From Roseburia sp. (GTDB taxonomy: Bacteria; Bacillota; Clostridia; Lachnospirales; Lachnospiraceae): a stretch of DNA of 34,862 bases. The translations under genes were made by a program, and so were the position numbers. Positions 13,745 through 33,197 of this stretch are shown here, in pieces. The notes under the pieces are model-generated. The model was not told the origin of the DNA, did no database searches, and worked only from the letters and a program-made list of their open reading frames with translations. Numbering within the stretch: the first letter of the stretch is position 1; each line of letters opens with the position of its first letter. The stretch covers positions 1 to 34,862 of the forward strand of contig JAFYVJ010000075.1 in NCBI GenBank assembly GCA_017549185.1. Direction: 5' to 3'.

Positions 13745-14263
13745 CTATACCAGCAAGATAATCAGCACCAATCCACTCATAATACAGACGGTCTGATATA
13801 CCTTTTGTTTCTCCTTCCGCTCTTTTTGCTCCACTTCCATCAGAAAATCCAATCTCTCCTGATATAGTGATAAAATTTTTTGATTTTCTTCTACGCTCTT
13901 TCCAAAAAATGCTCTACCCGCTTGTTCTATCACTTCACTCTCTTCTGCCTTTAACCCCAGCTCTTTTCTATATTTATGAAATACTTCCTGCCAGATATCC
14001 TCTCCGCATTTTGCCTCTTTTTTCATCAGACACTCGCCGATTTCTTTTAAGATTATCTTTAAACATTCGTCTTGCGTTTCAATCTGATAAAGAAGTACCA
14101 CTTCTACCGGACGTAGCGAATAATTCATTTCCCAGAAAATTTTAGACAAAAGACTTCGCAATTCAAAAAGACGATTCTGGTGCTGTTTTAATTCAGCTTG
14201 TATACAATATGCAAGTCCGATACTACTCACTATAATCAAGATACTTCCCGCCACCTTTAGCAC
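13745..14263 (-). CDS. spoIIIAB: Stage III sporulation protein AB
   Basis: SpoIIIAB is a membrane-anchored helical protein of the channel, related to type II secretion GspF domains. It is about 172 residues from the chosen start, with hydrophobic helices at both ends (about 4-22 and 153-172) and helical LFELRSLLSKIFWEMNY-like repeats between. The start is taken as the GTG at 14263 because AGGTGG lies 8 nt upstream. An in-frame GTG at 14275 also exists. Either way the gene overlaps the end of spoIIIAA. Confidence 0.92.
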   Translation of the reverse strand: MLKVAGSILIIVSSIGLAYCIQAELKQHQNRLFELRSLLSKIFWEMNYSLRPVEVVLLYQIETQDECLKIILKEIGECLMKKEAKCGEDIWQEVFHKYRKELGLKAEESEVIEQAGRAFFGKSVEENQKILSLYQERLDFLMEVEQKERKEKQKVYQTVCIMSGLVLIILLV

Positions 14264-15219
14264 AACAATTCCCACCTGTTGTCATACACTTTGCATTTCC
14301 GCATTCCCTCTTCTCCTTTTTCAATCAATACAAATCGTTCAAATAGTTCTTTTTCACACCACTTTTTCAAGATAGGTTTCTCCTGTAACTCTTTGAGACA
14401 TCCTGCATGAATCGTTCCAATGATGTTACAACCTGAATATGCCGCCTGCTCTACTGCCATAAAATCTTCTTCCATTCCCAATTCATCCACAGCAATCACC
14501 TCCGGTGACATCGTGCGAAGCAACATCTGAATTCCTTCGGGCTTATTACATCCATCTAACACATCTGTTCGTGGACCTATATCATTCTGTGGAATAGCAT
14601 GGTAGCTGGCAGCAATTTCCGAACGTTCATCGACAAGACCAACTTTGACTCCACCATAAGATAAACTCCGTATACAGTCTCTAAGCAGTGTCGTTTTTCC
14701 TGCACCGGGCGGCGAGACAATTAGAGTATTATATACATACTCTGGTTGTGTGCTATCATTCTTATACAAATGTCGTAACATCTCATCTGCACACCCAATC
14801 CGCTCATGTGCCACACGAATATTAAAAAACGTTAGATAGCTTATCCCGCCAATATGCCCATCACGATTTGTCGTGCCACCGGCAAGTCCAATTCTGTGCC
14901 CCCCTTGTATTGTTAAAAAGCCATTCCGTAACTCTTCCTGCCACGCATACAATGAATAATTACTGATATAATTTTGCATTTCAAGAATATCCTGCTCTGT
15001 TACACAGTAGCATTTTTCGTATCCTCTCTGCTCCTGACTATTCAGTATCATCATACTGCCTGTGCTTCTATCATTTTGCACTAGTACAAATTCTTCTTGT
15101 CCTCTATATATAAATAGCGGTTGCCTAATCCGCACCCTTATCTCTTCTAAATCCGGCATTTTAACCACTCTTTTCATTGCTTCACGTAAATGTAATGGAA
15201 ATAATAATTCAAGTTGCAC
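14257..15219 (-). CDS. spoIIIAA: Stage III sporulation protein AA (ATPase)
   Basis: SpoIIIAA is the cytoplasmic secretion-type ATPase of the SpoIIIA channel in the mother cell. It is about 320 residues with Walker A SPPGAGKTTLLRD and Walker B VIAVDELG. The start is a GTG at 15219 placed 5 nt after AAGGAGG. The upstream in-frame ATG at 15240 overlaps this ribosome binding site and is unlikely. It is the first gene of the eight-gene operon and is preceded by a SigmaE-like promoter and a leader hairpin (15254-15272, CCTCTG with CAGAGG). Confidence 0.95.
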   Translation of the reverse strand: MQLELLFPLHLREAMKRVVKMPDLEEIRVRIRQPLFIYRGQEEFVLVQNDRSTGSMMILNSQEQRGYEKCYCVTEQDILEMQNYISNYSLYAWQEELRNGFLTIQGGHRIGLAGGTTNRDGHIGGISYLTFFNIRVAHERIGCADEMLRHLYKNDSTQPEYVYNTLIVSPPGAGKTTLLRDCIRSLSYGGVKVGLVDERSEIAASYHAIPQNDIGPRTDVLDGCNKPEGIQMLLRTMSPEVIAVDELGMEEDFMAVEQAAYSGCNIIGTIHAGCLKELQEKPILKKWCEKELFERFVLIEKGEEGMRKCKVYDNRWELLC

Positions 15220-15292
15220 GAAATCCTCCTTGTTTTCCAAAAGAAAATGCGAGTCCTCTGACGAGCAGAGGATTTTGCCTCTTCCTTATTCA

Positions 15293-15381: not shown

Positions 15382-15573
15382 TCATTTCTCCTTTACTAGT
15401 TTCTCCATTCGAATATAATACTCTAGTAACCGCACTACATATTCCGGTGCATGTCGATTATCTCTCTCCCACTCTGTAACTGTTCGATATGGAATGTTAA
15501 AATAATCACAAAACTCTTTGCGATTCATCCCTGTACTTTCTCTCAATTCTTTTATCTTTTTGCTTTGTTCCAT
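15382..15573 (-). CDS. Small XRE-family helix-turn-helix protein
   Basis: A 63-residue protein that is little more than an XRE (Cro/CI) DNA-binding domain: IKELRESTGMNRKEFCDYFNIPYRTVTEWERD holds the helix-turn-helix (about residues 6-38), here broken into EFCDYFNIPYRTVTEWERD for the recognition part. Its C-terminal half (PEYVVRLLEYYIRMEKL) matches the N-terminal domain of the XRE protein paired with the Fic gene at 18750-19109. The start at 15573 follows GGTG at 6 nt; an in-frame GTG lies three codons upstream. It starts 18 nt after the PBECR4-like gene, so it is co-transcribed and may act as antitoxin or autoregulator. Confidence 0.8.
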   Translation of the reverse strand: MEQSKKIKELRESTGMNRKEFCDYFNIPYRTVTEWERDNRHAPEYVVRLLEYYIRMEKLVKEK

Positions 15574-15591
15574 AACAAACACCTTCTCCCT

Positions 15592-16176
15592 CTAAAATGA
15601 ATCGTCTACAATAATTCTATTGTTCGCATCGTATAATATAAACTTCTTCACTTTAACAACTTTTTGTCCTGCAATATACATATCTGTAGACTGATGAAAA
15701 AAAGTTTCTATATATCTTGTTCCACTTTTTGCATCTAATGCGATTCCCATATGATTATACTCATTCTTTGGTCTCTCTTCAAAAAGAATATAATCACTTT
15801 TTATTTTTGAATTAATCAGTGTTGGATTAAAATTAATTATCGCATCTGTGTAATTTAATGTAGTTAGATTATCATACGAAAAATTTTCATATCTGGCTTT
15901 TATTAATGGATAAAAATAACTGTTTTTAACCATTTCCTCTGTAAATGTTTCATTTTCTATGCGTTTCAGTACAGTTTGTAATTTTACTGTTTTATTACGC
16001 TTATCTTGCCAAAATTGTATTAACTGAATATCTTTCAGTTTATGAAGACCTAACAAATGTGGAAAATTTATTTCCCGATAAGGAACTATTATCTCCGTTC
16101 CATTTGAAAGTTCATATTCCGCCCTACAATCTTTCAATCGTAAATAATCATTATATTTTTGTAATAAATCATTCAT
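15592..16176 (-). CDS. PBECR4-like nuclease-domain protein (locus 1)
   Basis: This 194-residue soluble protein resembles the PBECR4 family (phage-Barnase-EndoU-ColicinE5/D-RelE-like nuclease 4), a predicted RNase-fold toxin domain. Motifs shared with the second copy at 23735-24304 are FPHLLGLHKLKD (38-49), SYFYPLIKAR (86-95), SDYILFE (127-133), the FF pair (159-160), Y.AGQ (167-171) and ILYD (180-183). The catalytic residues are not established; the conserved His40 is a candidate. The gene is notably AT-rich. It lies 15 nt behind the terminator of a structured RNA and just before an XRE gene. Toxin activity is an inference from the family and context. Confidence 0.6.
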   Translation of the reverse strand: MNDLLQKYNDYLRLKDCRAEYELSNGTEIIVPYREINFPHLLGLHKLKDIQLIQFWQDKRNKTVKLQTVLKRIENETFTEEMVKNSYFYPLIKARYENFSYDNLTTLNYTDAIINFNPTLINSKIKSDYILFEERPKNEYNHMGIALDAKSGTRYIETFFHQSTDMYIAGQKVVKVKKFILYDANNRIIVDDSF

Positions 16177-16191
16177 TTTACTTCCTAACGT

Positions 16192-16220
16192 AAAAATGCT
16201 CCTGTATTATCTACAGGAGC
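16192..16220 (-). terminator. Intrinsic terminator between the structured RNA and the PBECR4-like gene
   Basis: A perfect 9-bp stem GCTCCTGTA/TACAGGAGC with a 5-nt loop is followed on the minus strand by A and five T. The T-run is on the minus side only, which fixes the direction. The downstream gene has no promoter of its own in the remaining 15 nt, so some readthrough is needed to express it. Confidence 0.9.
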
Positions 16221-16339
16221 ATCATCACTATCTTTTGTTTGGTTCCTTTGTTTTCAGCATTCAGCCTATTCGGGAGAGCGAACCAACTCTCTGGTAGGAA
16301 CTCCAGATATGAGCCGAATGACCATATCCTTCTTCGTTC
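16221..16339 (-). ncRNA. Structured RNA upstream of the PBECR4-like gene (locus 1)
   Basis: The RNA starts near 16339, from the promoter at 16346-16374, and ends at the terminator 16192-16220. Predicted pairings are an outer 8-bp stem (16313-16320 with 16258-16265), a 4-bp hairpin at 16291-16306, a 5-bp hairpin at 16274-16291 and a 7-bp pseudoknot joining the loop of the latter (16280-16286) to the 3' tail (16239-16245). A 7-bp hairpin (16323-16329 with 16305-16311) has the 5' strand of the outer stem in its loop, so it either competes with that stem or forms a second pseudoknot. The RNA family was not recognised. It may be a toxin-neutralising RNA, a riboswitch-like leader or an sRNA. Confidence 0.65.
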
Positions 16340-16345
16340 AATTAA

Positions 16346-16374
16346 ATGATAGCAAAATAATCTGATGTTTTCAA
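16346..16374 (-). promoter_or_regulatory. Promoter of the locus 1 structured RNA
   Basis: TTGAAA (16369-16374) and TATCAT (16346-16351) are separated by 17 bp. Transcription would start near 16339, directly before the first paired element of the RNA. Confidence 0.75.
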
Positions 16375-16597
16375 GTGAATTTCCTGTTTTTACTCTTTAA
16401 GCGTCTCTGCTTTACACGTTGTGTAATCATTATATCGCACTTTTTATTTTTACGCAATGTGTAAATAGAACAAAAGTGTGCTTCGCACACTCTCGCGACC
16501 TCATTTACTGATATAGCACAGTTTTTGTTCCACGCGCGTAGCTGTGCATCGTTGGCACGTAGTGCTTTTAATTCATAGGAATTTCCTCGTATGAATT
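16375..16597. other. Gene-free palindromic stretch between two accessory cassettes
   Basis: No gene is visible. It holds a 6-bp GTGTGC/GCACAC hairpin with a 3-nt loop (about 16474-16489), a GC-rich structured part (about 16530-16565) and the start of the 12-bp inverted repeat listed separately. The GC-rich part stands out against AT-rich surroundings. Confidence 0.4.
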
Positions 16598-16601
16598 AAA
16601 A
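16566..16601. repeat. 12-bp inverted repeat next to a terminator
   Basis: TTTTAATTCATA (16566-16577) and TATGAATTAAAA (16590-16601) enclose a 12-nt spacer with GGAATTTCC. The right arm overlaps the T-run of the terminator at 16598-16626. The AGGAAATTC core (minus strand) is shared with the hairpin in the spoIIIA operon. Confidence 0.7.
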
Positions 16602-16626
16602 AGACAGCCTGTTTTTTCAGACTGCC
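16598..16626 (-). terminator. Terminator of the membrane protein-XRE unit
   Basis: It has the same stem and A6 loop as the terminator at 15325-15354, followed by five T on the minus strand. It lies 15 nt after the stop of the XRE gene. Confidence 0.85.
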
Positions 16627-16640
16627 TTCCCGCATTTTTC

Positions 16641-16835
16641 CTACTCTTCCCAAAACAACTCATCTAATGTTTTCCCTAACACCTTACAGATACTCCTGCA
16701 AAGCTGGATGGTCGGATTGTAATCTCCTTTTTCGATTGCATTTATGGTCTGACGTGAGACACCTACTTTATCTGCCAAATCCTGCTGTGATAAGTCCAGT
16801 GCAGCTCTTGCAGCCTTTAATTTTAAATTCTTCAT
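16641..16835 (-). CDS. Small XRE-family transcriptional regulator
   Basis: The 64-residue protein is a compact helix-turn-helix regulator (ARAALDLSQQDLADKVGVS, then RQTINAIEKGDYNPT, residues about 9-43) ending in VLGKTLDELFWEE. This is the common minimal family usually encoded beside a small membrane protein with a DERQ segment. Here it follows that membrane gene by 14 nt. It probably represses the shared promoter, where a direct repeat overlaps the -35 box. It is a different branch of XRE from the proteins at 15382 and 18750. Confidence 0.88.
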   Translation of the reverse strand: MKNLKLKAARAALDLSQQDLADKVGVSRQTINAIEKGDYNPTIQLCRSICKVLGKTLDELFWEE

Positions 16836-16849
16836 AATCCTCCGCTCAC

Positions 16850-17887
16850 CTACTCTTCTTCTCGTGACTGCAGTTTTGTATGTGTAAACAACACAACTGC
16901 CAACACTAATAATGAAATACCACAGAATAAATTGATACCATGAAAAGTAAGTACTCCATTCTCAAACATTGTACCATGAATCAGATGCATCATGCCAATA
17001 AAAGTATTAAATCCTCCCAAAAGAGTAAATACAAGCATCAGACGGTTCGCATTTTCATTTAATGAAACATACGCATCATGCTGTATACAATAAACTGCAT
17101 ATACTAAAGCGGTAAGTAAGATACCAAACATAATCAAAACACTCAAATCTATCGGAAGCGGAATACCTGTTACTATCAACAAACACAATACCCCATTATA
17201 TACGATACTGGTCACATATGCATATTTAAAACCGGTTCCTCTGGTAAGCTGCTGACGTTCATCATATTCAAAATTACTACCCTTTTTTCTTATTTTTACA
17301 TACTCGAAACACACCGCCACAGCTATAAGCCCCACCAAAACACCGGCTATCATTCCGACTAAATATCCCATTCTATATGTAATACTGCTTGCATATTTGA
17401 TAGTAAAGTGATATGTCATCGTATAACTTTCATTCTCCGCATATTCATATGTTTCTGCATCCTCAGGTAACGTGGTATCTACTGTCATAACAAATTCCTC
17501 AAATGCTTCTGCACTTGTAAAATACATATATGTCACATAATAGTCACCTGCTTCTAACTCCAGCTCTGTTGATTCGACATCTACCGTATCTCCCGTACAG
17601 TAAAGTCTAACCTTATCTTCTGCATCGTACAACACTGCACCTGAAATCATACCCGGTTTCTCTGCTGTCCATTTTACATTTACCACATAAGTGTCATCCT
17701 CTGTCAATGTAAACGGAATTGTGTGCTCGGTAATATCCGCCACACCTTCTACTACATTTATTTCTTCCTTGAACCAAAATTGTGTAACACTCTCATCCTT
17801 CGTCACTAAAAATGCAATACCTAAGATTCCGACAAACAACACTGCAATTAACACCGGCACTAACCATTTTTTCTTCATATACGCCAC
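16850..17887 (-). CDS. Membrane protein with extracytoplasmic domain, partner of XRE regulator
   Basis: This 345-residue protein has an N-terminal membrane anchor (about 9-27), a beta-rich extracytoplasmic region (about 35-165, with LELEAGDYYVTYMYF) and then five or so membrane segments. The cytoplasmic DERQQLTRGTGFKYAY motif (near 218-233) resembles the DERQ segment of DUF2178-type proteins that pair with small XRE regulators. The function is not known. It heads a two-gene unit with a consensus promoter. Confidence 0.6.
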   Translation of the reverse strand: MAYMKKKWLVPVLIAVLFVGILGIAFLVTKDESVTQFWFKEEINVVEGVADITEHTIPFTLTEDDTYVVNVKWTAEKPGMISGAVLYDAEDKVRLYCTGDTVDVESTELELEAGDYYVTYMYFTSAEAFEEFVMTVDTTLPEDAETYEYAENESYTMTYHFTIKYASSITYRMGYLVGMIAGVLVGLIAVAVCFEYVKIRKKGSNFEYDERQQLTRGTGFKYAYVTSIVYNGVLCLLIVTGIPLPIDLSVLIMFGILLTALVYAVYCIQHDAYVSLNENANRLMLVFTLLGGFNTFIGMMHLIHGTMFENGVLTFHGINLFCGISLLVLAVVLFTHTKLQSREEE

Positions 17888-17915
17888 CTCGTTTTCTTAT
17901 CTTCTTGTTGCTTTC

Positions 17916-17962
17916 ATGATAGCTCTTATATTACATTTTGTCAACTATATTTTACATTTAGT
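17916..17962 (-). promoter_or_regulatory. Promoter with direct-repeat operator of the membrane protein-XRE unit
   Basis: TTGACA (17939-17944) and TATCAT (17916-17921) are separated by 17 bp. TTACATTT occurs at 17931-17938 and 17952-17959 (plus strand), 21 bp apart and flanking the -35 box, within longer related blocks (17927-17941 and 17946-17962). Two helical turns between repeats fits binding of two regulator dimers on one DNA face. Confidence 0.65.
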
Positions 17963-17989
17963 AAAGTGTTTTTATATCAAAACTCAGAC

Positions 17990-18026
17990 AAAAACCCATA
18001 TACCTGCATCATACAAGTACATGGGT
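17990..18026 (-). terminator. Terminator of the XRE-Fic unit
   Basis: ACCCATGTACTTG pairs with CAGGTATATGGGT (13 bp with G-U pairs) and is followed by five T on the minus strand, right after the Fic gene stop. Confidence 0.85.
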
Positions 18027-18035
18027 TCTATATCA

Positions 18036-18746
18036 CTAATCCTTTTTTATCGAATACTTTTCTCTAAATGCCTCATAATCCACTTTCGCAATTTTATATT
18101 GTTCGCTGGCATGCTCCTCGCTCATAAGATACTCTGATTTCTGTATCTCATCTTGCAATGCATCAGAAAGAATCTTTCTTAAATATTCTTTCTGATCATA
18201 GTTTGCCATCACAAGCGAATCTCTTACATACATCGGATTATTTCGTAACAATGACACTTGAAAATTAAGACCTTTCCCCTTCAAATAATGCCATAAAAAT
18301 GTTATACAAGTTCTGGTATTACCTTCTCTAAAAGGATGGATACTCCATAGCTCTAACAAAAAATCCGACACAACTTCATTTCTATTTTTACACTCCCTCC
18401 AATCAAAATCCTTATATTCTAACAGTAATATTTCCAGTCTATTTTCTATCTCATGATAATCTGCATACTCTGCAGAACCACCTGATAAAACCCTCTCACT
18501 TTTATACCGGTTCTCTTTTCGAAATGTTCCTGCCCATTCATAAATATCCCCAAACAAATATTTATGAATATTCACCAAATGTACTATATCATAAGTATAT
18601 CTAATTCTTGTTGGCTTTATATCCAATCCCAACAATTTCGCAAATACTTTTTGTATTTCAAATTTCTCCAATAGTTCTTTATCACAAATATTATAGTTGT
18701 TAATAAGAACATCGCTTTCAGGATAGCAATTTCTTCCCCCGCTCAT
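18036..18746 (-). CDS. Fic/DOC family protein
   Basis: Fic proteins transfer AMP or related groups onto target proteins and often act as toxins. The 236-residue protein carries the complete catalytic motif HPFREGNTR (137-145) with the His base and the anion-binding EGN-R, plus the upstream target-docking region FGDIYEWAGTFRKENRYKSERVLSGG (here about 66-90, as FGDIYEWAGTFR and beyond). No (S/T)xxxE(G/N) inhibitory motif was found at either end, so any inhibition should come from the partner. It starts 3 nt after the XRE gene. It is probably the toxin of a toxin-antitoxin pair. Confidence 0.85.
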   Translation of the reverse strand: MSGGRNCYPESDVLINNYNICDKELLEKFEIQKVFAKLLGLDIKPTRIRYTYDIVHLVNIHKYLFGDIYEWAGTFRKENRYKSERVLSGGSAEYADYHEIENRLEILLLEYKDFDWRECKNRNEVVSDFLLELWSIHPFREGNTRTCITFLWHYLKGKGLNFQVSLLRNNPMYVRDSLVMANYDQKEYLRKILSDALQDEIQKSEYLMSEEHASEQYKIAKVDYEAFREKYSIKKD

Positions 18747-18749
18747 ATA

Positions 18750-19109
18750 CTACACTCCCAAATACTCAAATCTGTCAATCCTAACTTCCATTTCCTCCAA
18801 TGTTATTTTTCCAAAAATATAAGAATCTAAGACTTCTAAAAATAATTCATCCGGACCATTCGTAGCGCTCAACATGATAGCCATAGCATTTTCTACACTT
18901 TTTCTTCTTTCTTCACATGCCTCAATATAACTCTGACTTATAAGCATACCCTTATATTCTAAAATAGTTTTCATCATATTTATAACATATGCTGGAGGAT
19001 TTCTTCTCTCCTGTTCCCAATCCTTTAATGTAGCAACTGGTACATCAAACATTTTGGCAAATTTACTTTGGCTTAATCCTGTTTGTAATCGTAATTCTTT
19101 TACTTCCAT
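18750..19109 (-). CDS. XRE regulator paired with Fic, probable antitoxin
   Basis: The 119-residue protein has an N-terminal XRE domain (residues about 3-50, TGLSQSKFAKMFDVPVAT followed by LKDWEQERRNPP) related to the small XRE protein at 15382-15573. The C-terminal domain (about 58-119) is helical and ends in FGKITLEEMEVRIDRF, which recalls the (G.IS.EE) tails of VbhA-type Fic antitoxins; the canonical inhibitory Glu motif is not visible. It is the first gene of the unit and follows a consensus promoter, as expected of an autoregulating antitoxin. Confidence 0.7.
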   Translation of the reverse strand: MEVKELRLQTGLSQSKFAKMFDVPVATLKDWEQERRNPPAYVINMMKTILEYKGMLISQSYIEACEERRKSVENAMAIMLSATNGPDELFLEVLDSYIFGKITLEEMEVRIDRFEYLGV

Positions 19110-19138
19110 GATAATTACTTCCTCCCACCTCTATGCAT

Positions 19139-19167
19139 AGTATACGGCATTGCCTACCTTTTTACAA
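19139..19167 (-). promoter_or_regulatory. Promoter of the XRE-Fic unit
   Basis: TTGTAA (19162-19167) and TATACT (19139-19144) are separated by 17 bp. The spacer contains the palindrome GGCATTGCC (19146-19154), a possible operator for the XRE protein. Confidence 0.65.
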
Positions 19168-19184
19168 GTATTAGATGAAGCAAA

Positions 19185-19664
19185 TTATTGATTCACCTCC
19201 ATAACACCATCATAACGATATGAAGCAGCATATTTCGAAATGTAAAGTTTTATGTATTCGATACTTCTCCATACTCTAACAAATATCGTGCCACCATCCC
19301 TAAAAGAGTTAAAATCAGATTTAATACCAGCACTTGTTTCTGCTACAATATACACATCACTCTCTCGGTCTTTGTCCACTTTTTTTGCAGAAGTCTTATC
19401 TATTACAGATACTTTTTCGATATGATTTGAATAACCGTCATAGAAGCGTATTGCAGCATCATACTGCAACTCATCGAATGCTTTTTTTGCTTCCTCTCCC
19501 TGTCGACACGCTACTTCTCCCCATGTAAACAAGTGCCATAAATGATTGCCGTATGAAGTCACATGTTCCTCAAGTATCTCTTTATCAACATCTGCACCAA
19601 ATACAGCGATCCATTTATTCACCAATTCAGTTTCTGAGATTATAATTCTCTTATTCTTCTCCAT
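19185..19664 (-). CDS. DUF4275-like protein
   Basis: This 159-residue soluble protein matches in general outline the DUF4275 family: NHLWHLFTWGEVACRQGEEAKKAF (about 40-63) is the recognisable LWH.F...G..A..AF block, followed by FYDG near residue 74. The function of the family is unknown. It has a GGAAA ribosome binding site and starts 12 nt after the SHOCT protein gene, so the two are likely co-transcribed. Confidence 0.55.
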   Translation of the reverse strand: MEKNKRIIISETELVNKWIAVFGADVDKEILEEHVTSYGNHLWHLFTWGEVACRQGEEAKKAFDELQYDAAIRFYDGYSNHIEKVSVIDKTSAKKVDKDRESDVYIVAETSAGIKSDFNSFRDGGTIFVRVWRSIEYIKLYISKYAASYRYDGVMEVNQ

Positions 19665-19676
19665 GTATATTTCCTT

Positions 19677-20078
19677 TTATAACTCATCCAAAATTTCTTT
19701 CTTCTTCTGCTCATATTCCTCATAAGTAATCAAAGACTGATTATAAAGACTCTGTAATTTTTTCAAACGGGCTTCCGCATCTTCTTCCGATGTTGTTTTT
19801 GAATCATACGAATATGACTGATAAGCTCCATGCTCGGTTACAGTTACATCCCGTCCATCATCTTCAATTTCAATCACATGACTGTCAATCTGCTCATCTG
19901 TAAATCCATTTTTATAATTCACATAGGTAATCCAGCCTGCGATTGCAGTCCAGAAAATTCCAAATGGTCCAAAAATCGGAATCACCATAAATACTCCTAT
20001 TAAGCAGAAAATAATTCCCACTCCAAACCCCATCTTTGACTGACCTTTTCCTGGTCTTACATGAATTCTTTTTGACAT
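19677..20078 (-). CDS. SHOCT-domain membrane protein
   Basis: A 133-residue protein with two adjacent hydrophobic segments (about 17-38 and 40-53) and a C-terminal SHOCT (short C-terminal) domain, recognised by EARLKKLQSLYNQSLITYEE, then YEQKKKEILDEL (about 101-133). SHOCT domains are short helical hairpins of unclear, possibly oligomerising role. A strong GGAGG precedes the ATG at 7 nt. It lies between the anti-sigma gene and the DUF4275-like gene. Confidence 0.75.
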   Translation of the reverse strand: MSKRIHVRPGKGQSKMGFGVGIIFCLIGVFMVIPIFGPFGIFWTAIAGWITYVNYKNGFTDEQIDSHVIEIEDDGRDVTVTEHGAYQSYSYDSKTTSEEDAEARLKKLQSLYNQSLITYEEYEQKKKEILDEL

Positions 20079-20187
20079 ATCTCTTCCTCCAAACTACTTC
20101 GTAACTATTTAAAAATTTCCAGTATCGTTTTTTCAATCCAAAATCACTAGCATTCTTCTATAACTTTTCGCAAAACTAATGCTTTGC

Positions 20188-21075
20188 TTATTCATCAGCA
20201 TTCTTGACTTGCTCTTTGTGCCGTTCTAAGTCTTTCTCACGTTCTTTAAGCACCTCTTGTCTGACCGGATTATCTTCGGATAAATTAAGCCCTTTGGGTA
20301 GACAATCTTTCGGAATGTAGTCTTTATAAGCAATATCCATACTATATGACGGAAAAGCCAAATATACATAGTTAATACTACCTTCGCCATCTGTAAGTGC
20401 ATAGATAAAATTATGATTATCCGCATACATAGCAAGAAGTTCTTTTTCTTTAAATATACCGGCACCATAATTTCCCAAATACTCTGTTGATTCATAAGTA
20501 CGTAAGCGCTCTACCTCAACCTTATAATCCTCCTCGTCATATTCCACTTCAAGATAGCCCAGATAATTAGAGTCCCACGGACAATAATGAATCATCAAAT
20601 AATCTGTCACATTCATATCTTCTGTAATTTCTTCCGGCCAAATTGTGCCCAAATTACGAGACCATTCCAAAAGATTTCTTCCATCATCAAGCATCCCATA
20701 TTCACGGATATCATAATGCGTTTCCCAAGTATCTGCTGCCGTCTTGGCCACATATAAAGCAATCAACGCCCATAAACCAATCACTACCCCAATTGCCACC
20801 ACTGATGTGATTAATACCGCCTTTATTATTGTTTTTATAATCTTCTTTGAAATTGTTTTCGACACTTCTTTGAAAGAATCCGCTGTCTTTTTCGTTATCT
20901 CTTCATCAAATGCCACCTCTTCTAACGCATCCGCCTGACACATTTTTTCATAATACGATTTACAGTCTTCACATTCACCAAAATGTTCTACTACCGCTTT
21001 TTCACTTTCTTTACTTACCACCCCATCATGATAAAGTGGCAGGATATCTCTTATTAAATTACACGGATACTTCAT
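20188..21075 (-). CDS. Anti-sigma factor with zinc-finger domain
   Basis: The 295-residue membrane protein begins with an anti-sigma zinc-finger domain: Cys5 and HFGECEDC (His31, Cys35, Cys38). One transmembrane segment follows (about 85-110) and then an extracytoplasmic domain rich in acidic residues and Tyr. Such proteins hold an ECF sigma factor inactive at the membrane until a signal is received. Its ATG overlaps the stop of the ECF sigma gene by 4 nt, which supports the pair. The signal cannot be deduced. Confidence 0.88.
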   Translation of the reverse strand: MKYPCNLIRDILPLYHDGVVSKESEKAVVEHFGECEDCKSYYEKMCQADALEEVAFDEEITKKTADSFKEVSKTISKKIIKTIIKAVLITSVVAIGVVIGLWALIALYVAKTAADTWETHYDIREYGMLDDGRNLLEWSRNLGTIWPEEITEDMNVTDYLMIHYCPWDSNYLGYLEVEYDEEDYKVEVERLRTYESTEYLGNYGAGIFKEKELLAMYADNHNFIYALTDGEGSINYVYLAFPSYSMDIAYKDYIPKDCLPKGLNLSEDNPVRQEVLKEREKDLERHKEQVKNADE

Positions 21076-21557
21076 TCCAGCTCCTCCTTAATCTTTATTT
21101 TTGCACGGTGGTAAGTTACACGTGCCCAGCTCTCTGTCTTTTTATGTATTCTGGCAATTTCCAAAAAAGAAAGTTCTCCAAAAGTCCGCATCCAAAACAC
21201 TTCACGGTAGGGTTCCTCCAACACATGAAGCACCTCATGTATTTTTAATGCCATATCTTTATCAACCACAAGCTTTTCGATGCTTTCGTCACTTTCTATA
21301 TCCAATGATTCCACTGAGAAATCAGCTAATCGCTTTTTCTTTTTCAAATGTGTGTATAACGTATTCTTTGCTATCTGACAAACCCATACTGAAAATTTAC
21401 ACTCACCTTTGAAATTATCCACATTTTTAAGCACTTTGAAAAAGGTCTCCTGCGTAATCTCTTCCGCAAGAACTTCATCTCCGCACAGTTTCAATACATA
21501 ACGGTAAACCTGCGGATAATAATTCTTGTAAAGTGTTTCAAACTCCTGCACCGGCAT
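21072..21557 (-). CDS. ECF RNA polymerase sigma factor
   Basis: This 161-residue sigma-70 family protein has region 2 (about 8-75, with ITQETFFKVLKNVDNFKG as the -10 recognition part) and region 4 (about 108-158, with FGELSFLEIARIHKKTESWAR as the helix-turn-helix). No region 1 or 3 is present, as in ECF factors. It is coupled to a zinc-finger anti-sigma gene. A candidate ECF promoter upstream suggests autoregulation. The closest named group is not determined. Confidence 0.92.
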   Translation of the reverse strand: MPVQEFETLYKNYYPQVYRYVLKLCGDEVLAEEITQETFFKVLKNVDNFKGECKFSVWVCQIAKNTLYTHLKKKKRLADFSVESLDIESDESIEKLVVDKDMALKIHEVLHVLEEPYREVFWMRTFGELSFLEIARIHKKTESWARVTYHRAKIKIKEELE

Positions 21558-21581
21558 TCCTCCTTCCTGTGTTTCTATCTA

Positions 21582-21610
21582 TATGACATCCTAACTGAAT
21601 ATTCGTTACA
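21582..21610 (-). promoter_or_regulatory. Candidate ECF-type promoter of the sigma-anti-sigma unit
   Basis: TGTAAC (21605-21610) and GTCATA (21582-21587), 17 bp apart, resemble the TG-AAC and CGTC/GTC elements used by ECF sigma factors and do not fit SigmaA. It suggests the sigma factor reads its own gene. Confidence 0.55.
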
Positions 21611-21683
21611 AATATTTTTTAGGTTTTGTATTTCCCCCATACTTCCTTTTTATCAAATGCAAAGCGGTTCTTCATAACCGTTT

Positions 21684-21800
21684 TCATCGAAAATCTCCCG
21701 TATCATCTCTCCAGCCCTCTGATTTGTCGTACCATTCCTTTGTTGCATTTTCAACTATTTCAACTCGATAACCAAATAAATTGTATTCCTCCATCCTCAT
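21684..21800 (-). CDS. Possible small protein or gene remnant (38 residues)
   Basis: A short frame starts with ATG AGG ATG and reads EEYNLFGYRVEIVENATKEW, then YDKSEGWRDDTGDFR before TGA. The composition (balanced charged and aromatic residues) looks protein-like rather than random. AGGGGATGAGG lies before the second ATG. It may be a real small protein or the leftover of a longer gene. There is no recognised family. Confidence 0.35.
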   Translation of the reverse strand: MRMEEYNLFGYRVEIVENATKEWYDKSEGWRDDTGDFR

Positions 21801-21830
21801 TCCCCTATAATATCACAAAATATATTAATC

Positions 21831-22547
21831 TTAATTTGATAGTAAGCGACCCAATATCTGCTTTCTATTATTTATAAATAATTCTGTCACTTGATAACTC
21901 TCTGTCTCTTCATATTTACACTTATGAATGATACCATCATCAAAAGTCAATATCTCTGCATCAGGAATTCCTAACAATATAGGTGAATGTGTAACAATTA
22001 TAAATTGTGAACCACATTTTGCACATTCGTATATCTCCATAAGCAAGGTTAACTGACGCTGAGGCGACAACGCCGCTTCCGGTTCGTCAAAAATATACAG
22101 ACCATTCGGTTTCAACTGGCTCTGTGCCACAGATAGAAAACTCTCCCCATGAGATTTCTGATGATACTTTTTAGATGGATGAGCCATGTCTGCATATTCT
22201 TCTTCTTTCGTTGCAACATTATAAAAACTTTCTGCTCTAAGAAAATAGCCCCATCCTGCTTTTCTATATCCCTTTAAGAGCCTTATACTTTCACATAAAT
22301 TTGAATGAGAATCATAAGTTGAAAAACTATAATTCTTCGTACCACCCTCAGGATTAAATCCATAAGATATCGCAATAGCTTCTAATAAAGTAGATTTTCC
22401 GCTTCCATTCTCTCCTACAAAAAACGTAATTGGTTTCGTAAATTCCAATGTACTCAATCCATTTATCGCTTCTATTTTTCGCAAATAGCTTTCTCGATCA
22501 ATTCTATTCCAATCAATAGATATGCCTTTTATAAACTGCTCATTCAT
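21831..22547 (-). CDS. AAA ATPase of the ABC/SMC-like type
   Basis: The 238-residue protein is a single ATPase domain with Walker A VGENGSGKST (about 44-53), a signature-like HGESFLS (about 132-138), Walker B LYIFDEPEAALS (about 149-160) and the switch His in THSPIL. There is no transmembrane region, and the lid is short. Relatives are stand-alone ATPases often found in accessory and defence loci; no partner nuclease is adjacent, so the role is open. It is a stand-alone gene in the island. Confidence 0.75.
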   Translation of the reverse strand: MNEQFIKGISIDWNRIDRESYLRKIEAINGLSTLEFTKPITFFVGENGSGKSTLLEAIAISYGFNPEGGTKNYSFSTYDSHSNLCESIRLLKGYRKAGWGYFLRAESFYNVATKEEEYADMAHPSKKYHQKSHGESFLSVAQSQLKPNGLYIFDEPEAALSPQRQLTLLMEIYECAKCGSQFIIVTHSPILLGIPDAEILTFDDGIIHKCKYEETESYQVTELFINNRKQILGRLLSN

Positions 22548-22614
22548 CTCACAAAATTTCCTCTAACTTCTCTACAAAACGCTTCTACAAAACAGCTTTT
22601 ATGATGATACTTAT

Positions 22615-22974
22615 TTACCGTTCTATTCTTAAACAATAAAATGACAGTCTACTCGGTATATATTTATCCAGATGATTCCAAATATCAGCATGATACAACT
22701 CGTAAATATCCCGGACTGTCATCTCATCAATACTAAGTGTACGCTTATGAATTACCGGACTATCTTCATATTCATAATAATAACCATGCCCTTCCAACAC
22801 CTGCAAACTTTGGGCCGCAGATACACCGCACACAACTGAAAATATGGGATTAATAGCAAAAAATAATATAAAACAAACTGCCATTCCTGCACTTCCAGCA
22901 AATTCTACTGCCAGCCACGGACAGCCAAGCATCAAAATTATCGCTAATACAGTCCAAATAATCAACTTCTTCAT
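22615..22974 (-). CDS. Small membrane protein, possibly chimeric
   Basis: The 119-residue protein has two N-terminal membrane segments (about 4-24 and 28-53, with CPWLAVEFAGSAGMAVCFILF). From about residue 56 the sequence turns into a soluble, acidic stretch (GHGYYYEYEDSPV, then EMTVRDIYELYHADIWNHLD). The N-terminal part looks like the start of an all-membrane protein whose other membrane segments are missing, so the gene may be a fusion or a truncated copy. No function is known. Confidence 0.5.
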   Translation of the reverse strand: MKKLIIWTVLAIILMLGCPWLAVEFAGSAGMAVCFILFFAINPIFSVVCGVSAAQSLQVLEGHGYYYEYEDSPVIHKRTLSIDEMTVRDIYELYHADIWNHLDKYIPSRLSFYCLRIER

Positions 22975-23005
22975 ATAATCACACCCTCATTAAATTAAAA
23001 TTGAC

Positions 23006-23413
23006 TTACTTTTTCTTTACCAATATACAAACCAGCAAAGTAACCAAACACGATATAAATGGAGAAGCATAATCAGCAATTAGGCTGCCCCAAAAAGTTG
23101 CATTGCTCCAATGCGGAGAGGTGAAATAAAGATAAGTTCCCCATACCGCAAATATACCTGTAATCAGAATAAGAAGTGCCTTGATAATGTTCCATTTCCC
23201 AACTCTAAATACTAATACTTGCACAGCAAACGAAGGGATAACCCGCAAGATTACAGACATTAAATCATTCCACATCACAAACGACCAAAACAGCAAAACA
23301 ATCGGAATAATCACCGCAATCACAAGCAATGCGTCAATAATTTTTTTCTCGTGTAATTGCAAATCCAACTCCAATTTCTTACTTAATTCGTTTTCATACG
23401 ATTCTCTATCCAT
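23006..23413 (-). CDS. Small polytopic membrane protein of unknown function
   Basis: A 135-residue protein with a charged N-terminus (residues 1-23) and four hydrophobic segments (about 25-46, 52-70, 76-97 and 110-131), ending in KKK. It was not recognised. It lies among other small accessory genes and has no visible partner. Confidence 0.55.
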   Translation of the reverse strand: MDRESYENELSKKLELDLQLHEKKIIDALLVIAVIIPIVLLFWSFVMWNDLMSVILRVIPSFAVQVLVFRVGKWNIIKALLILITGIFAVWGTYLYFTSPHWSNATFWGSLIADYASPFISCLVTLLVCILVKKK

Positions 23414-23464
23414 TACAACTTCTCCACAAACAATTCACTTTTTACAATCTCTACAACTTAGAAT

Positions 23465-23554
23465 TTATAATCTTGCTTCGTTTAAATATTTCTCAAAGCG
23501 TTTCCACATATCGCCTTCTACATGCTTTAATTTCAAAGTTTTTTCATGCTCCAT
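23465..23554 (-). CDS. Possible small protein (29 residues)
   Basis: ATG is preceded by AGGGGGG one base away and the frame reads MEHEKTLKLKHVEGDMWKRF, then EKYLNEARL and TAA. The sequence looks like a real helical protein fragment. It may be a micro-ORF or the remnant of a longer gene; the 320-nt gap between 23414 and 23734 holds nothing else except the terminator at its right end. Confidence 0.35.
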   Translation of the reverse strand: MEHEKTLKLKHVEGDMWKRFEKYLNEARL

Positions 23555-23683
23555 TCCCCCCTATTATTCCATAAACATTCTTTCCCAAACTCCTGCAGAC
23601 TTCTCTAAATCTAAACCTATAAAGAATAATGACATCTCATATTTTCTAATTTAATTTTATAAAAGGTACCGTTTTTTGTAAAT

Positions 23684-23727
23684 AAAAAACAGCCAATCTT
23701 AAAGAAATCTTATGATTAACTGTTTTT
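23684..23727 (-). terminator. Terminator after the second PBECR4-like gene
   Basis: ACAGTTAATC pairs with GATTGGCTGT (two G-U pairs) and a T6 run follows on the minus strand. It starts 8 nt after the gene. Confidence 0.8.
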
Positions 23728-23734
23728 ATCATTA

Positions 23735-24304
23735 TTATGCTATTCTATTATACAGAATTTCTCTTTCACCTGTAGAAATCCTTCTCTTTTCTTTATATAA
23801 CAACGTCCATGATGCTTGATTTTTTGTATAATCCTTTCCTTCCTCAGGGAAAAATGAACGGCAGAAATACTTTCCATCCCTATTCTTACCTAAAAAAACA
23901 AATATATTTCCAAACTCCGTTTTGTTTTTCATCAAATACTCTGCTTGTATCATCGAAAATGAATTTTTCTTTTCATTATACTTAAATATAGTATCATTAC
24001 TATCAAAATACTTTTCTAAATCCGGAAGTCTATCTATTCTGCCAGAAATCTTTTGATAGAAATCTGAAGTCTCGACATGTTCCGCCGTTATCTTTCGTTC
24101 TTTTGTCTCATCAAATATTCTGCCTCTATCACGATTTAACCGAGGTCTGTCTGTAAGGTATTGCAATCCCATCAAATGAAAACAATCCTTTTTGTCAAAA
24201 GTTATATGGAGAGAAACTGAAACGCCTTTTCTACCAAGTATCATATAATACTCTGTATCAAGCAATGAGGAAAAAGAAACCACACAATCATAAATATTAT
24301 GCAT
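23735..24304 (-). CDS. PBECR4-like nuclease-domain protein (locus 2)
   Basis: The 189-residue soluble protein fits the PBECR4 family of predicted RNase-fold toxin domains more closely than the copy at 15592-16176. Shared blocks are CFHLMGLQYLTD (41-52), SDFYQKISGRID (80-91), AEYLMKN (121-127), SFFPEEG (150-156), DYTKNQ (158-163) and LLYKEK (168-173). His43 is the conserved His. It stands alone without an XRE partner; upstream is a promoter, a structured RNA and a terminator. A plain reading is an RNA-cutting toxin or effector, which is not proven. Confidence 0.65.
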   Translation of the reverse strand: MHNIYDCVVSFSSLLDTEYYMILGRKGVSVSLHITFDKKDCFHLMGLQYLTDRPRLNRDRGRIFDETKERKITAEHVETSDFYQKISGRIDRLPDLEKYFDSNDTIFKYNEKKNSFSMIQAEYLMKNKTEFGNIFVFLGKNRDGKYFCRSFFPEEGKDYTKNQASWTLLYKEKRRISTGEREILYNRIA

Positions 24305-24336
24305 GTTCCCATCCTATCTTTGTTAGAATTTTAATA

Positions 24337-24354
24337 TTACTGCCCTAGCAGTAA
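24337..24354. promoter_or_regulatory. 7-bp palindrome between the RNA terminator and the locus 2 nuclease gene
   Basis: TTACTGC and GCAGTAA flank four bases, about 33 nt upstream of the gene. It could be an operator or a leader hairpin. Confidence 0.4.
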
Positions 24355-24384
24355 AAAAGATTTAAAAAATTGTTTTTAGATTAG

Positions 24385-24419
24385 AAAAGCTCTGTCCCCA
24401 TTATAGAAACAGAGCTTTT
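24385..24419 (-). terminator. Terminator of the locus 2 structured RNA
   Basis: An 11-bp perfect stem AAAAGCTCTGT/ACAGAGCTTTT with a 13-nt loop ends in four T on either strand. The T-run is short, so readthrough into the downstream nuclease gene is plausible. Confidence 0.85.
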
Positions 24420-24551
24420 AACATTTTCTTTCAGTAATTACCCTAGCCGGCTTGTGGTAAATGTTCAACCCTTATAAAGCTCGTAAGGCACTGCATTCCG
24501 GCACAACACCTTACTTCAACACTTTGATAGACACACTTGTTGCCTATCTCT
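24420..24551 (-). ncRNA. Structured RNA upstream of the PBECR4-like gene (locus 2)
   Basis: The RNA would start near 24551 and end at the terminator 24385-24419. It folds into GATAG/CTATC near its 5' end, then a 6-bp stem (24483-24488 with 24509-24514) with a large loop, then an AACATTT/AAATGTT-closed hairpin (about 24420-24467). GCCGG in the first large loop (24498-24502) can pair with CCGGC in the last loop (24446-24450), giving a kissing interaction. There is no coding capacity of note. Its sequence is not similar to the locus 1 RNA. The family was not recognised. Confidence 0.65.
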
Positions 24552-24557
24552 AATATT

Positions 24558-24586
24558 ATATTACCTTGACCTCCAAAATATGTCAA
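24558..24586 (-). promoter_or_regulatory. Strong promoter of the locus 2 structured RNA
   Basis: TTGACA (24581-24586) and TAATAT (24558-24563) are separated by 17 bp, just after the argS stop codon. The match to the SigmaA consensus is among the best in the window, which fits an abundant RNA. Confidence 0.8.
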
Positions 24587-24595
24587 TGAAATATT

Positions 24596-26383
24596 CTACA
24601 TTCTATCCGGTGCAGAGAATCCAAGTACATCAATACATGTCTCTAATACCGCTTTTGTAAGTTCAAGCAAACGAATATAAGACTTCTGTGTAACCTCATT
24701 CTCTTCTGCCATAATTTTGGTGCCATGATAGAAACTGTTGAATGCATTTGCCAAATCATAGATATAAGCACAAATCTTGTGTGGTGCTGTCTCTTCGAAA
24801 GCATTTTCCATCATTGCATTGAATTTACTAAGTTCCATCATCAAATCTTTTTCACTCTTAGAATGAGCTGGTTCGATAACTGCACCTGCTACGTCTTTTC
24901 CAAGTCCGTAATATTTACTCAAAATAGACTTGATACGAACGATTGTATATAAGATGTATGGACCTGTGTTACCTTCAAAAGAAGTGAAACGGTCAATATC
25001 AAAGATATAATCTTTGCTTGCCTGATTTGAAAGATCACCATACTTAATTGCTGCTAATGCAACTACTTTTGAAGTAGCTTTTGCTTCTTCTTCAGAAATG
25101 TCTAAGTTCTCTTTCGTCTTCTGGTTTTCAACAATTTTCTTCAACATTTCTTCGTTGATTTCATCAACAAGGTACTCTAAACGCATAACACCGCCGTCAC
25201 GAGTCTTAAATGGCTTGCCATCTTTACCATTCATGGTACCGAAACCGATATGCTTTAATGTCATCTCATCTTTTACCATACCAGTTTTTCTTGCACAACG
25301 GAATACCTGAATGAAATGAAGTTCCTGTCTCTTATCGGTCAAGTAAATCATACCATCTGGATTGTAGTCTTCTACACGCCATACGATAGTTGCAAGGTCT
25401 GTTGTACTGTAAAGAGAAGCTCCATCTGATTTCAAAATGATACATGGAGGAATCTCTTTTGTGTCAGTCTCTTCTTTTACATCTACTACTAATGCACCTT
25501 CGCTTTCGTATGCGAAACCGCCGTCTTTCATCATCTGAACCATATCCGGGATGTATGGCTGAGCATCTTTTTCGCCCTTCCATAATTCGAATGATACATT
25601 CAAGTTCTCATAGTTCTTCTTTAAGTCACTTACAGACACATGCAAAATGTGGTCAAGTAATGCACGATAACCTCTTCTACCCTGCTGTAACTCATTTGTA
25701 GCTGCAAGCGCTGCTTCTTTATACGCTTCATCTTCTTTTGACTTACCGCTGGCTGTTGGATAGATTTCTTCTAATTCTGCGATAGTAAATGGAGCTTCTG
25801 CTGGATATTCTCCTTCATAAGCTTCATCAAAATATACTAATTCTGGTTTTCTGAGTTTTAATTCAGTGATGATTAAGCCCATCTGTAAGCCCCAGTCACC
25901 AAGATGTACGTCACCAATCATGTTGTGACCCATGTATTTACCGATACGTTTGATACTTTCACCGATAATTGCAGAACGTAAATGTCCTACATGAAGTGGT
26001 TTTGCTACGTTAGGTCCGCCGTAGTCTACGATGATGGTCTTTGGATTCTCTGCTTTATCACAGCCAAAACGACCTTCATCTTTGCACATATTTTCTACGA
26101 ATTCTGCTAAATAAGCTTCGTCAATTTTCAAATTCAAAAAGCCCGGTTTAACAGACTCTGCCATAGAAAACATAGGGTTTGTAACCAATTTTGCTACTAC
26201 GTCATCTGCAATCATAAATGGTGCTTTCTTATATTCTTTGGAAGCTGCCATTGCCCCATTACACTGATATTCACAAAGGTCTGGTCTATTTGATAAAGTA
26301 ACTTTTGCATACTTTGCATCATAACCACATTCAACGAATGCTTTTGTTACCTCTTCTGTTATCAAATCTAAGAATTTCTTCAT
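24596..26383 (-). CDS. argS: Arginyl-tRNA synthetase
   Basis: ArgRS charges tRNA-Arg. The 595-residue class I synthetase has the N-terminal Add1 domain, the HIGH-type motif KPLHVGHLRSA, the GDWGLQMG block, and FKTRDGGVMRL in the KMSKS position, followed by the helical anticodon-binding domain (TGPYILYTIVRIKSIL). The length is typical for the bacterial enzyme. A possible promoter lies upstream (TTGACT, 17 bp, TACTGT). It has no terminator of its own before the locus 2 RNA promoter, so the RNA terminator probably ends it too. Confidence 0.97.
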   Translation of the reverse strand: MKKFLDLITEEVTKAFVECGYDAKYAKVTLSNRPDLCEYQCNGAMAASKEYKKAPFMIADDVVAKLVTNPMFSMAESVKPGFLNLKIDEAYLAEFVENMCKDEGRFGCDKAENPKTIIVDYGGPNVAKPLHVGHLRSAIIGESIKRIGKYMGHNMIGDVHLGDWGLQMGLIITELKLRKPELVYFDEAYEGEYPAEAPFTIAELEEIYPTASGKSKEDEAYKEAALAATNELQQGRRGYRALLDHILHVSVSDLKKNYENLNVSFELWKGEKDAQPYIPDMVQMMKDGGFAYESEGALVVDVKEETDTKEIPPCIILKSDGASLYSTTDLATIVWRVEDYNPDGMIYLTDKRQELHFIQVFRCARKTGMVKDEMTLKHIGFGTMNGKDGKPFKTRDGGVMRLEYLVDEINEEMLKKIVENQKTKENLDISEEEAKATSKVVALAAIKYGDLSNQASKDYIFDIDRFTSFEGNTGPYILYTIVRIKSILSKYYGLGKDVAGAVIEPAHSKSEKDLMMELSKFNAMMENAFEETAPHKICAYIYDLANAFNSFYHGTKIMAEENEVTQKSYIRLLELTKAVLETCIDVLGFSAPDRM

Positions 26384-33147: not shown

Positions 33148-33197
33148 ATATAAGCACTCTATCCTTCTTATCAAATCTAATATATTCATTTCATACT

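What the first reader, a model, noticed from the sequence alone, without database searches (positions are those of the whole stretch)
15382..24551. Two PBECR4-like nuclease genes, each behind a promoter, structured RNA and terminator: a type III-like toxin-antitoxin candidate
Seen: both loci have the same order on the minus strand: SigmaA-like promoter with 17-bp spacer, structured RNA of about 120-130 nt with a potential pseudoknot or kissing loop, intrinsic terminator, then a short spacer and the nuclease-like gene. Known: in type III toxin-antitoxin systems (ToxIN, AbiQ type) an RNA antitoxin is followed by a leaky terminator and a ribonuclease toxin gene. Inferred: these RNAs could bind and block the PBECR4-like proteins. 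Against it: no tandem repeats in the RNAs, no sequence similarity between the two RNAs, and locus 1 has an XRE protein that could itself be the antitoxin.
Basis: partly seen in the sequence, partly recalled or inferred. Interest (0 to 1): 0.8.

Follow-up and report, generated by a model that had tools for sequence, protein, structure and literature searches.

The report
RNA-guarded nucleases: drum RNA finds partner
Two putative RNA-cutting toxin genes each sit behind their own small folded RNA, one of which is the known but unexplained "drum" RNA; in the relatives examined such toxin genes usually come with an RNA of this kind, so the RNAs are most likely the antidotes to the toxins.

Summary
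Observation confirmed. Both minus-strand loci show promoter, structured RNA, terminator and PBECR4 gene (PF18813, 37 and 123.8 bits). The locus 2 RNA is the orphan Rfam family drum (95.8 bits). In 397 genomes of the window's family 31 of 43 drum hits lie 14-142 nt upstream of a PBECR4 domain; drum also precedes PBECR4 in 3 of 3 drum-clade plasmid loci read. The locus 1 RNA misses Rfam's cut-offs but precedes 12 of 12 loci found by toxin sequence (three of them supplied the model), covaries strongly and shares drum's architecture. Other PBECR4 clades carry other RNAs, some of them tandem repeats; 18 of 92 places fit no class. RNA class follows toxin phylogeny. The XRE gene has no significant relative beside those 12 loci. 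Best reading: type III-like toxin-antitoxin modules with a new toxin family and several RNA families. Toxicity, binding and neutralisation are untested; the BECR fold is unconfirmed. No drum-PBECR4 link was seen in capped listings of the held library.

The parts
16346..16374 (-). Promoter-like site of locus 1 (TTGAAA-17-TATCAT, TG before the -10)
   Evidence: ends 4 nt before the RNA model start
16232..16341 (-). Locus 1 RNA (here called class C, drum-like). P1 16339-16336/16301-16298; P2 16328-16323/16311-16306; P4 16291-16287/16278-16274; P5 about 16266-16264/16258-16256; loop pairing 1 16318-16314/16273-16269; loop pairing 2 16285-16280/16245-16240
   Evidence: R1 hit 128.8 bits, though this sequence is one of the five behind R1; covariation over 17 distinct sequences; coordinates, P5 read by hand
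16195..16223 (-). Intrinsic terminator between RNA and toxin gene, 12-pair stem
15592..16176 (-). PBECR4 nuclease-like gene 1, 194 aa, putative toxin (HLLG motif, His40 counted by hand)
   Evidence: PF18813 37 bits, cut-off 27; conservation
24558..24586 (-). Promoter-like site of locus 2 (TTGACA-17-TAATAT)
24526..24548 (-). 5' hairpin P0 of the locus 2 RNA, outside the Rfam model, present in related drum loci
   Evidence: 90.6% of cells paired over 12 sequences, only 1 pair changed on both sides
24416..24524 (-). drum RNA RF02958. Loop pairing 1 24502-24498/24450-24446; loop pairing 2 24465-24459/24426-24420
   Evidence: 95.8 bits, gathering 43
24384..24416 (-). Terminator of locus 2 (AGCTCTGT...ACAGAGCT then TTTTC)
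   Evidence: read by eye; not among the sites of the scan; drum loci as a set 23 of 30
23735..24304 (-). PBECR4 nuclease-like gene 2, 189 aa, putative toxin (HLMG motif, His43 counted by hand)
   Evidence: PF18813 123.8 bits; conservation

Best explanation
Each locus is a type III-like toxin-antitoxin module. One promoter makes an abundant short structured RNA that mostly ends at the terminator; a minority of transcripts read through and yield the PBECR4 protein, a predicted metal-independent endoribonuclease. The compact, doubly pseudoknotted RNA binds the protein and covers its active site; [quoted passage not shown] Shown here: gene order, conserved covarying RNA, terminator, linkage across genera and on plasmids, co-inheritance of RNA class and toxin clade, RNAs that stand beside broken or missing toxin genes. 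Inferred: endoribonuclease activity, toxicity, direct binding and neutralisation, leaky termination, trigger.
For: drum 14-142 nt upstream of a PBECR4 domain in 31 of 43 hits; toxin remnants behind 3 more, none in the upstream control stretches. Plasmid drum-PBECR4: 3 of 3 loci read, of 20 records. Class C RNA upstream of 12 of 12 toxin-found loci, 9 of them not in the model. Covariation: class C 97.8% of cells paired, 13 pairs changed on both sides, score 0.421 against 0.184 in shuffles, 0 of 500; drum 90.1%, 13 pairs, 0.416 against 0.203, 0 of 500, both loop pairings covarying. RNA class on the toxin tree: 6 changes for 7 classes, the minimum, rows without a class left out. His and Gly in 62 of 62 and Ser/Thr in 60 of 62 proteins, like the His plus C-terminal Thr/Ser reported for five of six PBECR families (PMC5512222, passages). 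Terminators above shuffles in all classes but F. Tandem-repeat RNAs in sister clades.
Against: No expression, toxicity, binding or cleavage data. 18 of 61 PBECR4 places without an Rfam drum hit fitted no RNA class, six of them with genes long enough for the tree and not at a contig edge. A distant plasmid relative of toxin 1 (26.4% identity) has no class C RNA in front; an insertion element stands there. 8 of 43 drum hits have no toxin trace though sequence is held (one of them, L043, is under the cut-off), and 2 of 7 class C hits found by RNA lack the toxin. For drum the number of pair types is not above shuffles (27 against 27.5), and the window's own close subgroup covaries only a little (0.142 against 0.111). 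The window RNAs have no tandem repeats. Foldseek and VIA-align gave no significant match for the toxin 1 model; the toxin 2 model is poor (pLDDT 47.1).
Confidence: 0.77

Rival explanations
1. The RNAs are cis-acting leaders (attenuator or autoregulatory site) that only set how much PBECR4 protein is made and do not neutralise it.
For: RNA and terminator lie between promoter and gene. An RNA kept with a toxin clade would also fit an autoregulatory binding site.
Against: The fold is closed and a linker separates it from the terminator; I saw no switch helix, but did not search for one systematically. Sister clades have tandem-repeat RNAs, which fit a titrating antidote better than a leader. drum occurs without a toxin gene.
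Confidence: 0.13
2. Locus 1 is a type II module with the XRE protein as antitoxin, and the RNA is incidental.
For: The XRE gene follows the toxin gene by 9 nt.
Against: In 12 class C loci (up to 1.5 kb downstream, where the contig allows) tblastn with the XRE protein gave only two short hits, E 0.28 and 0.41, while all 12 have the RNA.
Confidence: 0.03
3. PBECR4 uses the RNA as a cofactor or sensor (an RNA-armed effector), so that the RNA activates rather than blocks the nuclease.
For: Complex, conserved RNAs with nearly invariant loop pairings. RNA toxin-antitoxins are reported as ancestors of RNA-guided effectors (recalled, not read).
Against: Broken or missing toxin genes stand behind kept RNAs, which fits an antidote better.
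Confidence: 0.05
4. drum is an independent small RNA and the association is chance or hitch-hiking.
For: Rfam types drum as sRNA; some copies stand alone.
Against: 31 of 43 against about 0.0003 expected; the link recurs on Enterococcus and Streptococcus plasmids and in another family of the phylum.
Confidence: 0.01

Closest known systems
AbiF/RCd22 of Clostridioides difficile (abiF RNA motif RF03085)
   Same: SigA promoter, RNA of 132 nt with a curated Rfam motif, terminator, then the toxin gene; the RNA neutralises the protein in cis and trans (PMC12373285, abstract and passages).
   Different: The toxin is AbiF, not PBECR4, and the RNA is another Rfam family.
ToxIN / CptIN / TenpIN type III toxin-antitoxin systems
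   Same: Antitoxin RNA first, one promoter, Rho-independent terminator, toxin gene, pseudoknotted RNA, antitoxin repeats conserved with the toxin group (PMC5086642, passages). Class B and D PBECR4 relatives have tandem repeats.
   Different: The toxin family is PBECR4: the Pfam scan gave no ToxN match. The two window RNAs are single-copy.
drum RNA, RF02958
   Same: The locus 2 RNA is a member (95.8 bits).
   Different: Mentioned without a function in the passages I saw (PMC7657543, PMC7779021, PMC11974997). The PBECR4 partner and the 5' hairpin are added here.
PBECR domains of polyvalent phage proteins
   Same: Predicted BECR RNase family with His and Thr/Ser (PMC5512222, passages).
   Different: Here solo proteins behind RNAs, in chromosomes and plasmids; no relative was found in phage records or viral contigs.

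Membership tests
Type III toxin-antitoxin system | Antitoxin RNA gene directly upstream of the toxin gene, one promoter | tested here: met
   By sequence; transcription itself not measured
Type III toxin-antitoxin system | Rho-independent terminator between RNA and toxin gene | tested here: met
Type III toxin-antitoxin system | Antitoxin made of tandem repeats | tested here: not met
   None seen in the two window RNAs. Two copies of 54 nt and of 32 nt in one locus each of the related classes B and D
Type III toxin-antitoxin system | Pseudoknotted RNA | tested here: met
   Loop pairings covary in drum; in class C they are kept but nearly invariant, one covarying end pair
Type III toxin-antitoxin system | RNA conserved together with the toxin group | tested here: met
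   (quick tree, SH-aLRT support only)
Type III toxin-antitoxin system | Toxin is an endoribonuclease, toxic alone, processes and is neutralised by its RNA | not testable with these tools
   Only sequence evidence
ToxIN / CptIN / TenpIN | ToxN-like toxin | tested here: not met
   Pfam scan of both toxins: PF18813 and one sub-threshold UL97 hit only
PBECR4, PF18813 | Score above the curated cut-off of 27 bits | tested here: met
   37 and 123.8 bits
PBECR4, PF18813 | BECR fold | tested here: inconclusive
drum RF02958, locus 2 | Score above gathering 43 | tested here: met
   95.8 bits
drum RF02958, locus 1 | Score above gathering 43 | tested here: not met
   No hit there in the window; two class C relatives hit drum weakly at the same place, 27.3 and 25.5 bits. 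Like drum by architecture, not filed as a member

The most novel reading that the evidence does not exclude
PBECR4 is a large type III toxin family that has recruited at least seven RNA antidote classes, one per toxin clade: drum (an orphan RNA until now), a divergent drum sister (locus 1), 54-nt and 32-nt tandem-repeat RNAs, and three more. This would explain drum and add several RNA families to Rfam.
Probability: 0.62. Interest if true: 0.87.

Novelty: new variant of a known kind. Interest (0 to 1): 0.8.

Why it matters
It gives an orphan structured RNA a partner and a testable job, adds a toxin family without a Pfam link to ToxN, and shows RNAs of quite different make (single pseudoknotted or tandem-repeat) beside one toxin family. 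The modules ride on chromosomes and plasmids, so they may serve plasmid upkeep or phage defence (inference). PADLOC and NCBIfam gave no match at E 0.01 for either window toxin.

Tried and rejected
XRE as antitoxin of locus 1: rejected. Plain folding energy as evidence for structure: not informative. Promoter count as evidence: at chance. Relatives in phage records: none for toxin 1 or toxin 2; in viral contigs none with toxin 1, toxin 2, a drum-clade alignment or a class B alignment. Plasmid DNA similar to the locus 1 RNA: none. Plasmid relatives of toxin 1: one, with an insertion element in front and only a weak R1 hit inside the gene (11.9 bits). Solved relatives of toxin 2 by sequence: none significant. 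Fold searches with the toxin 1 model: no significant match, which does not exclude a BECR fold; its five models varied (mean pLDDT 85.9 to 56.3). Structure of toxin 2: poor, not searched. Rfam scans of 48 loci (40 of the 61 non-drum PBECR4 loci plus two others, six scanned twice; eight, of which four are class C): besides drum hits, a TPP riboswitch in L103, a T-box in L136 and hits below Rfam's cut-offs. MAFFT misaligned drum helices between subgroups, so pairs were counted on two selected sets, 13 and 12 of the 43 hits (A6, A7); P5 was left out of both, and the fifth pair of loop pairing 1 out of A6. One search printed wrong places for P5 of locus 1 and for P1 and P4 of locus 2, because it took the first string match; the P5 given here was read by hand. 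The original drum description (Weinberg et al. 2017, recalled) and Blower et al. 2012 are not held, so I could not see whether either noted a downstream gene.
Full report
What is in the window. Both loci are on the minus strand between argS-like (24596-26383) and spoIIIAA-like (14257-15240) genes (names recalled from the translations). Locus 1: promoter-like site 16374-16346, RNA 16341-16232, terminator 16223-16195, PBECR4 gene 16176-15592, XRE gene 15582-15382. Locus 2: promoter-like site 24586-24558, hairpin P0 24548-24526, drum RNA 24524-24416, terminator, PBECR4 gene 24304-23735. Both proteins pass the Pfam cut-off for PF18813 with 37 and 123.8 bits. The locus 2 RNA is drum, RF02958, 95.8 bits against a gathering score of 43; nothing else in the window reaches an Rfam cut-off.

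drum goes with PBECR4. RF02958 was sought in 397 genomes of the window's family: 43 hits in 36 genomes, 41 over the cut-off. PF18813 in the same 397 genomes gave 96 pieces in 72 genomes, merged to 92 places. 31 of 43 drum hits lie 14-142 nt upstream of the start of a PBECR4 domain match on the same strand; some of these genes are broken or fragmentary (stops inside or partial matches). Chance would give about 0.0003, taking 3.2 Mb per genome and 200 nt. Of the other 12, three (L012, L016, L040) have PBECR4 remnants, one (L009) has only 25 nt held after the RNA, and eight show none, one of them (L043) under the cut-off; the same search of the stretches upstream of drum gave none. In 398 genomes of the phylum two further drum hits were found: L142, in another family, is followed by a PBECR4 gene (62.1 bits); L141 is not. 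On plasmids 20 records encode a relative of toxin 2, 19 from Enterococcus and 1 from Streptococcus suis. Three were read, and all three have drum above the gathering score directly upstream (51.8, 50 and 46.4 bits).

The locus 1 RNA is drum-like in all but score. Five upstream sequences gave model R1. In 392 genomes of the order R1 found 7 places: five with a PBECR4 gene downstream (one, in L127, apparently cut short), one without it (L125) and one before another gene (L126). A search by toxin sequence in genome contigs gave 12 loci, and all 12 carry R1 hits upstream. 8 of 9 proteins of alignment A8 pass E 0.01 against PF18813. On 21 RNA rows (17 distinct) 97.8% of cells pair, 13 pairs change on both sides (8.9 in shuffles, 1 of 500 as high), and the score is 0.421 against 0.184 (0 of 500); sliding the partner drops pairing to at most 46.8%. 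The alignment was fitted to the model's structure, loop pairings apart, and so leans towards it. Helices P1, P2, P4 and P5 covary; loop pairing 1 has no covarying pair, loop pairing 2 one. The one plasmid relative of toxin 1 (Enterococcus faecium, 26.4% identity) has no such RNA in front: a transposase gene of an insertion element ends about 120 nt before it, and R1 finds only 11.9 bits inside the gene.

Shared architecture. Both RNAs have P1 around GAA-P2-GGA, a P2 loop that pairs with a CCGAA or CCGGC strand, then UAGG-P5, and a P4 loop that pairs with the 3' end. In class C and in several drum RNAs that element reads CCGAAUAGG...CCGAAA; the window's drum copy reads CCGGCUAGG...CUGAAA. In drum 90.1% of cells pair, 13 pairs change on both sides and the score is 0.416 against 0.203 (0 of 500), but the number of pair types is not above shuffles (27 against 27.5); loop pairing 1 is 100% paired with two covarying pairs of the four counted, loop pairing 2 is 80.8% paired with two (13 of the 43 hits, chosen for a common layout). 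In the window's own, closely related subgroup (12 of 43) the signal is weak (score 0.142 against 0.111, 1 of 500); the loop pairings have one and three covarying pairs, and the 5' hairpin P0, which the Rfam model lacks, is 90.6% paired with one. A K-turn was predicted for drum by others (PMC11974997, one table passage). I read the GAA/GGA junction as that K-turn, which is inference. Two class C RNAs hit drum weakly at the same place (27.3 bits; 25.5 bits), below the cut-off, so locus 1 is not filed as drum.

Other PBECR4 genes carry other RNAs. Of the 61 PBECR4 places without an Rfam drum hit, motif patterns that I wrote after reading the upstreams sort 43 into classes B 20, D 7, C 6, E 5, F 2, G 2 and one drum variant; 18 fit none. 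The drum variant reaches exactly 43 bits. So 74 of 92 places have a recurrent RNA upstream. The 18 include partial genes, contig edges, two that look B-like by eye (L079, L119), and six genes long enough for the tree and not at a contig edge (L082, L084, L087, L099, L107, L115). In class B locus L047 a 54-nt unit, in class D locus L113 a 32-nt unit stands in two tandem copies (93% and 75% alike; a third unit in L113 and repeats in other B loci by eye). In class B the arms of the first unit are fully complementary in 17 of 22 loci, with six different sequence pairs; the arms of the last unit match in 2 or 3 of 4 positions only. A plasmid PBECR4 gene in Enterococcus has a tandem repeat of about 62 nt, read by eye, before a terminator. 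Only drum and class C were tested for covariation in full; classes D to G rest on recurrence.

RNA class and toxin evolve together. On a quick tree of 76 proteins (family places without stops and of 110 aa or more, plus eight class C rows with X at stops and three plasmid rows; 8 rows have no class; L079 and L119 were labelled B and L095 drum by hand) the seven classes need 6 changes, the minimum, when rows without a class are left out. Counted against all other rows drum needs 2, B 3, C 1, D 1, E 2, F 1; all eight groups together need 11 against 43.5 in shuffles. Support is SH-aLRT only, several branches are long, and near-copies help clustering.

The protein. In 62 aligned proteins (those with a class and over 150 aa) His and Gly of the HLxG motif are present in all and a Ser/Thr near the C-terminus in 60. 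This agrees with the His and C-terminal Thr/Ser reported for five of six PBECR families (PMC5512222, passages). AlphaFold2 gave a fair model of toxin 1 (best of five pLDDT 85.9, pTM 0.75), but neither Foldseek nor VIA-align found a significant relative; toxin 2 folded poorly. The BECR fold is therefore unconfirmed.

Terminators and promoters. Between RNA and gene a terminator-like hairpin is found in 23 of 30 drum loci (0.8 expected), 7 of 20 class B, 6 of 6 class C, 6 of 7 class D, 5 of 5 class E, 0 of 2 class F and 2 of 2 class G. A -10-like hexamer lies 20-55 nt before 35 of 43 drum hits against 16.3 expected in simple shuffles.

The XRE gene of locus 1 has no significant relative near the 12 class C loci (two short hits, E 0.28 and 0.41), so I take it for a neighbour, not the antitoxin.

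Mechanism. I take the modules to be type III-like: RNA made in excess, terminator limiting toxin, pseudoknotted RNA covering the nuclease. The nearest worked case is AbiF/RCd22, with the same layout and neutralisation by RNA in cis and trans (PMC12373285, abstract and passages). Type III systems are described by layout, repeats, pseudoknots and processing by the toxin (PMC5086642, passages). Layout and pseudoknots are met here; repeats are not met in the two window RNAs but occur in sister clades; processing and neutralisation are untested.

Literature. Searches for drum RNA, RF02958, PBECR4 and RNA antitoxins showed no paper that links drum to PBECR4 or PBECR4 to an RNA antitoxin, judging by the listings, several of them capped, and the passages read. 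The library lacks most subscription journals and the original drum paper, so priority is not certain.

Noticed in passing
window 18036-19109 (-): A Fic protein (PF02661; best NCBIfam match VbhT, below its cut-off; PADLOC candidate PDC-S04) directly behind an XRE-type gene: a second toxin-antitoxin-like pair in the same island.
   Followed up: no
window 21831-22547 (-): AAA ATPase of the AAA_21 kind, with partial matches to PtuA and AriA defence ATPases.
   Followed up: no
window 32134-33189 (-): RhuM family protein, strong match to PADLOC candidate PDC-S05.
   Followed up: no
L144 1835-3986: On an Enterococcus faecalis plasmid the drum-PBECR4 module is followed by an AbiH family gene.
   Followed up: partly
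L009 and L020, just after the drum RNA: Two drum copies are followed by similar GGGGCTGTCGC sequence; in L020 a long ORF on the other strand follows, so an insertion element may have landed right behind the RNA. L009 holds only 25 nt after it.
   Followed up: no
L126 627-738: A class C RNA copy whose P2 loop has changed stands before an unrelated 376-aa ORF: remnant, or a new partner.
   Followed up: no
L147: A PBECR4 gene in another family of the phylum (G1011) has an upstream stretch, with a terminator by eye, that matches no Rfam family and none of my classes by eye.
   Followed up: partly
plasmid records: 78 plasmid records, 76 from Enterococcus and 56 typed conjugative, encode a distant relative of a class B toxin; one was read.
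   Followed up: partly
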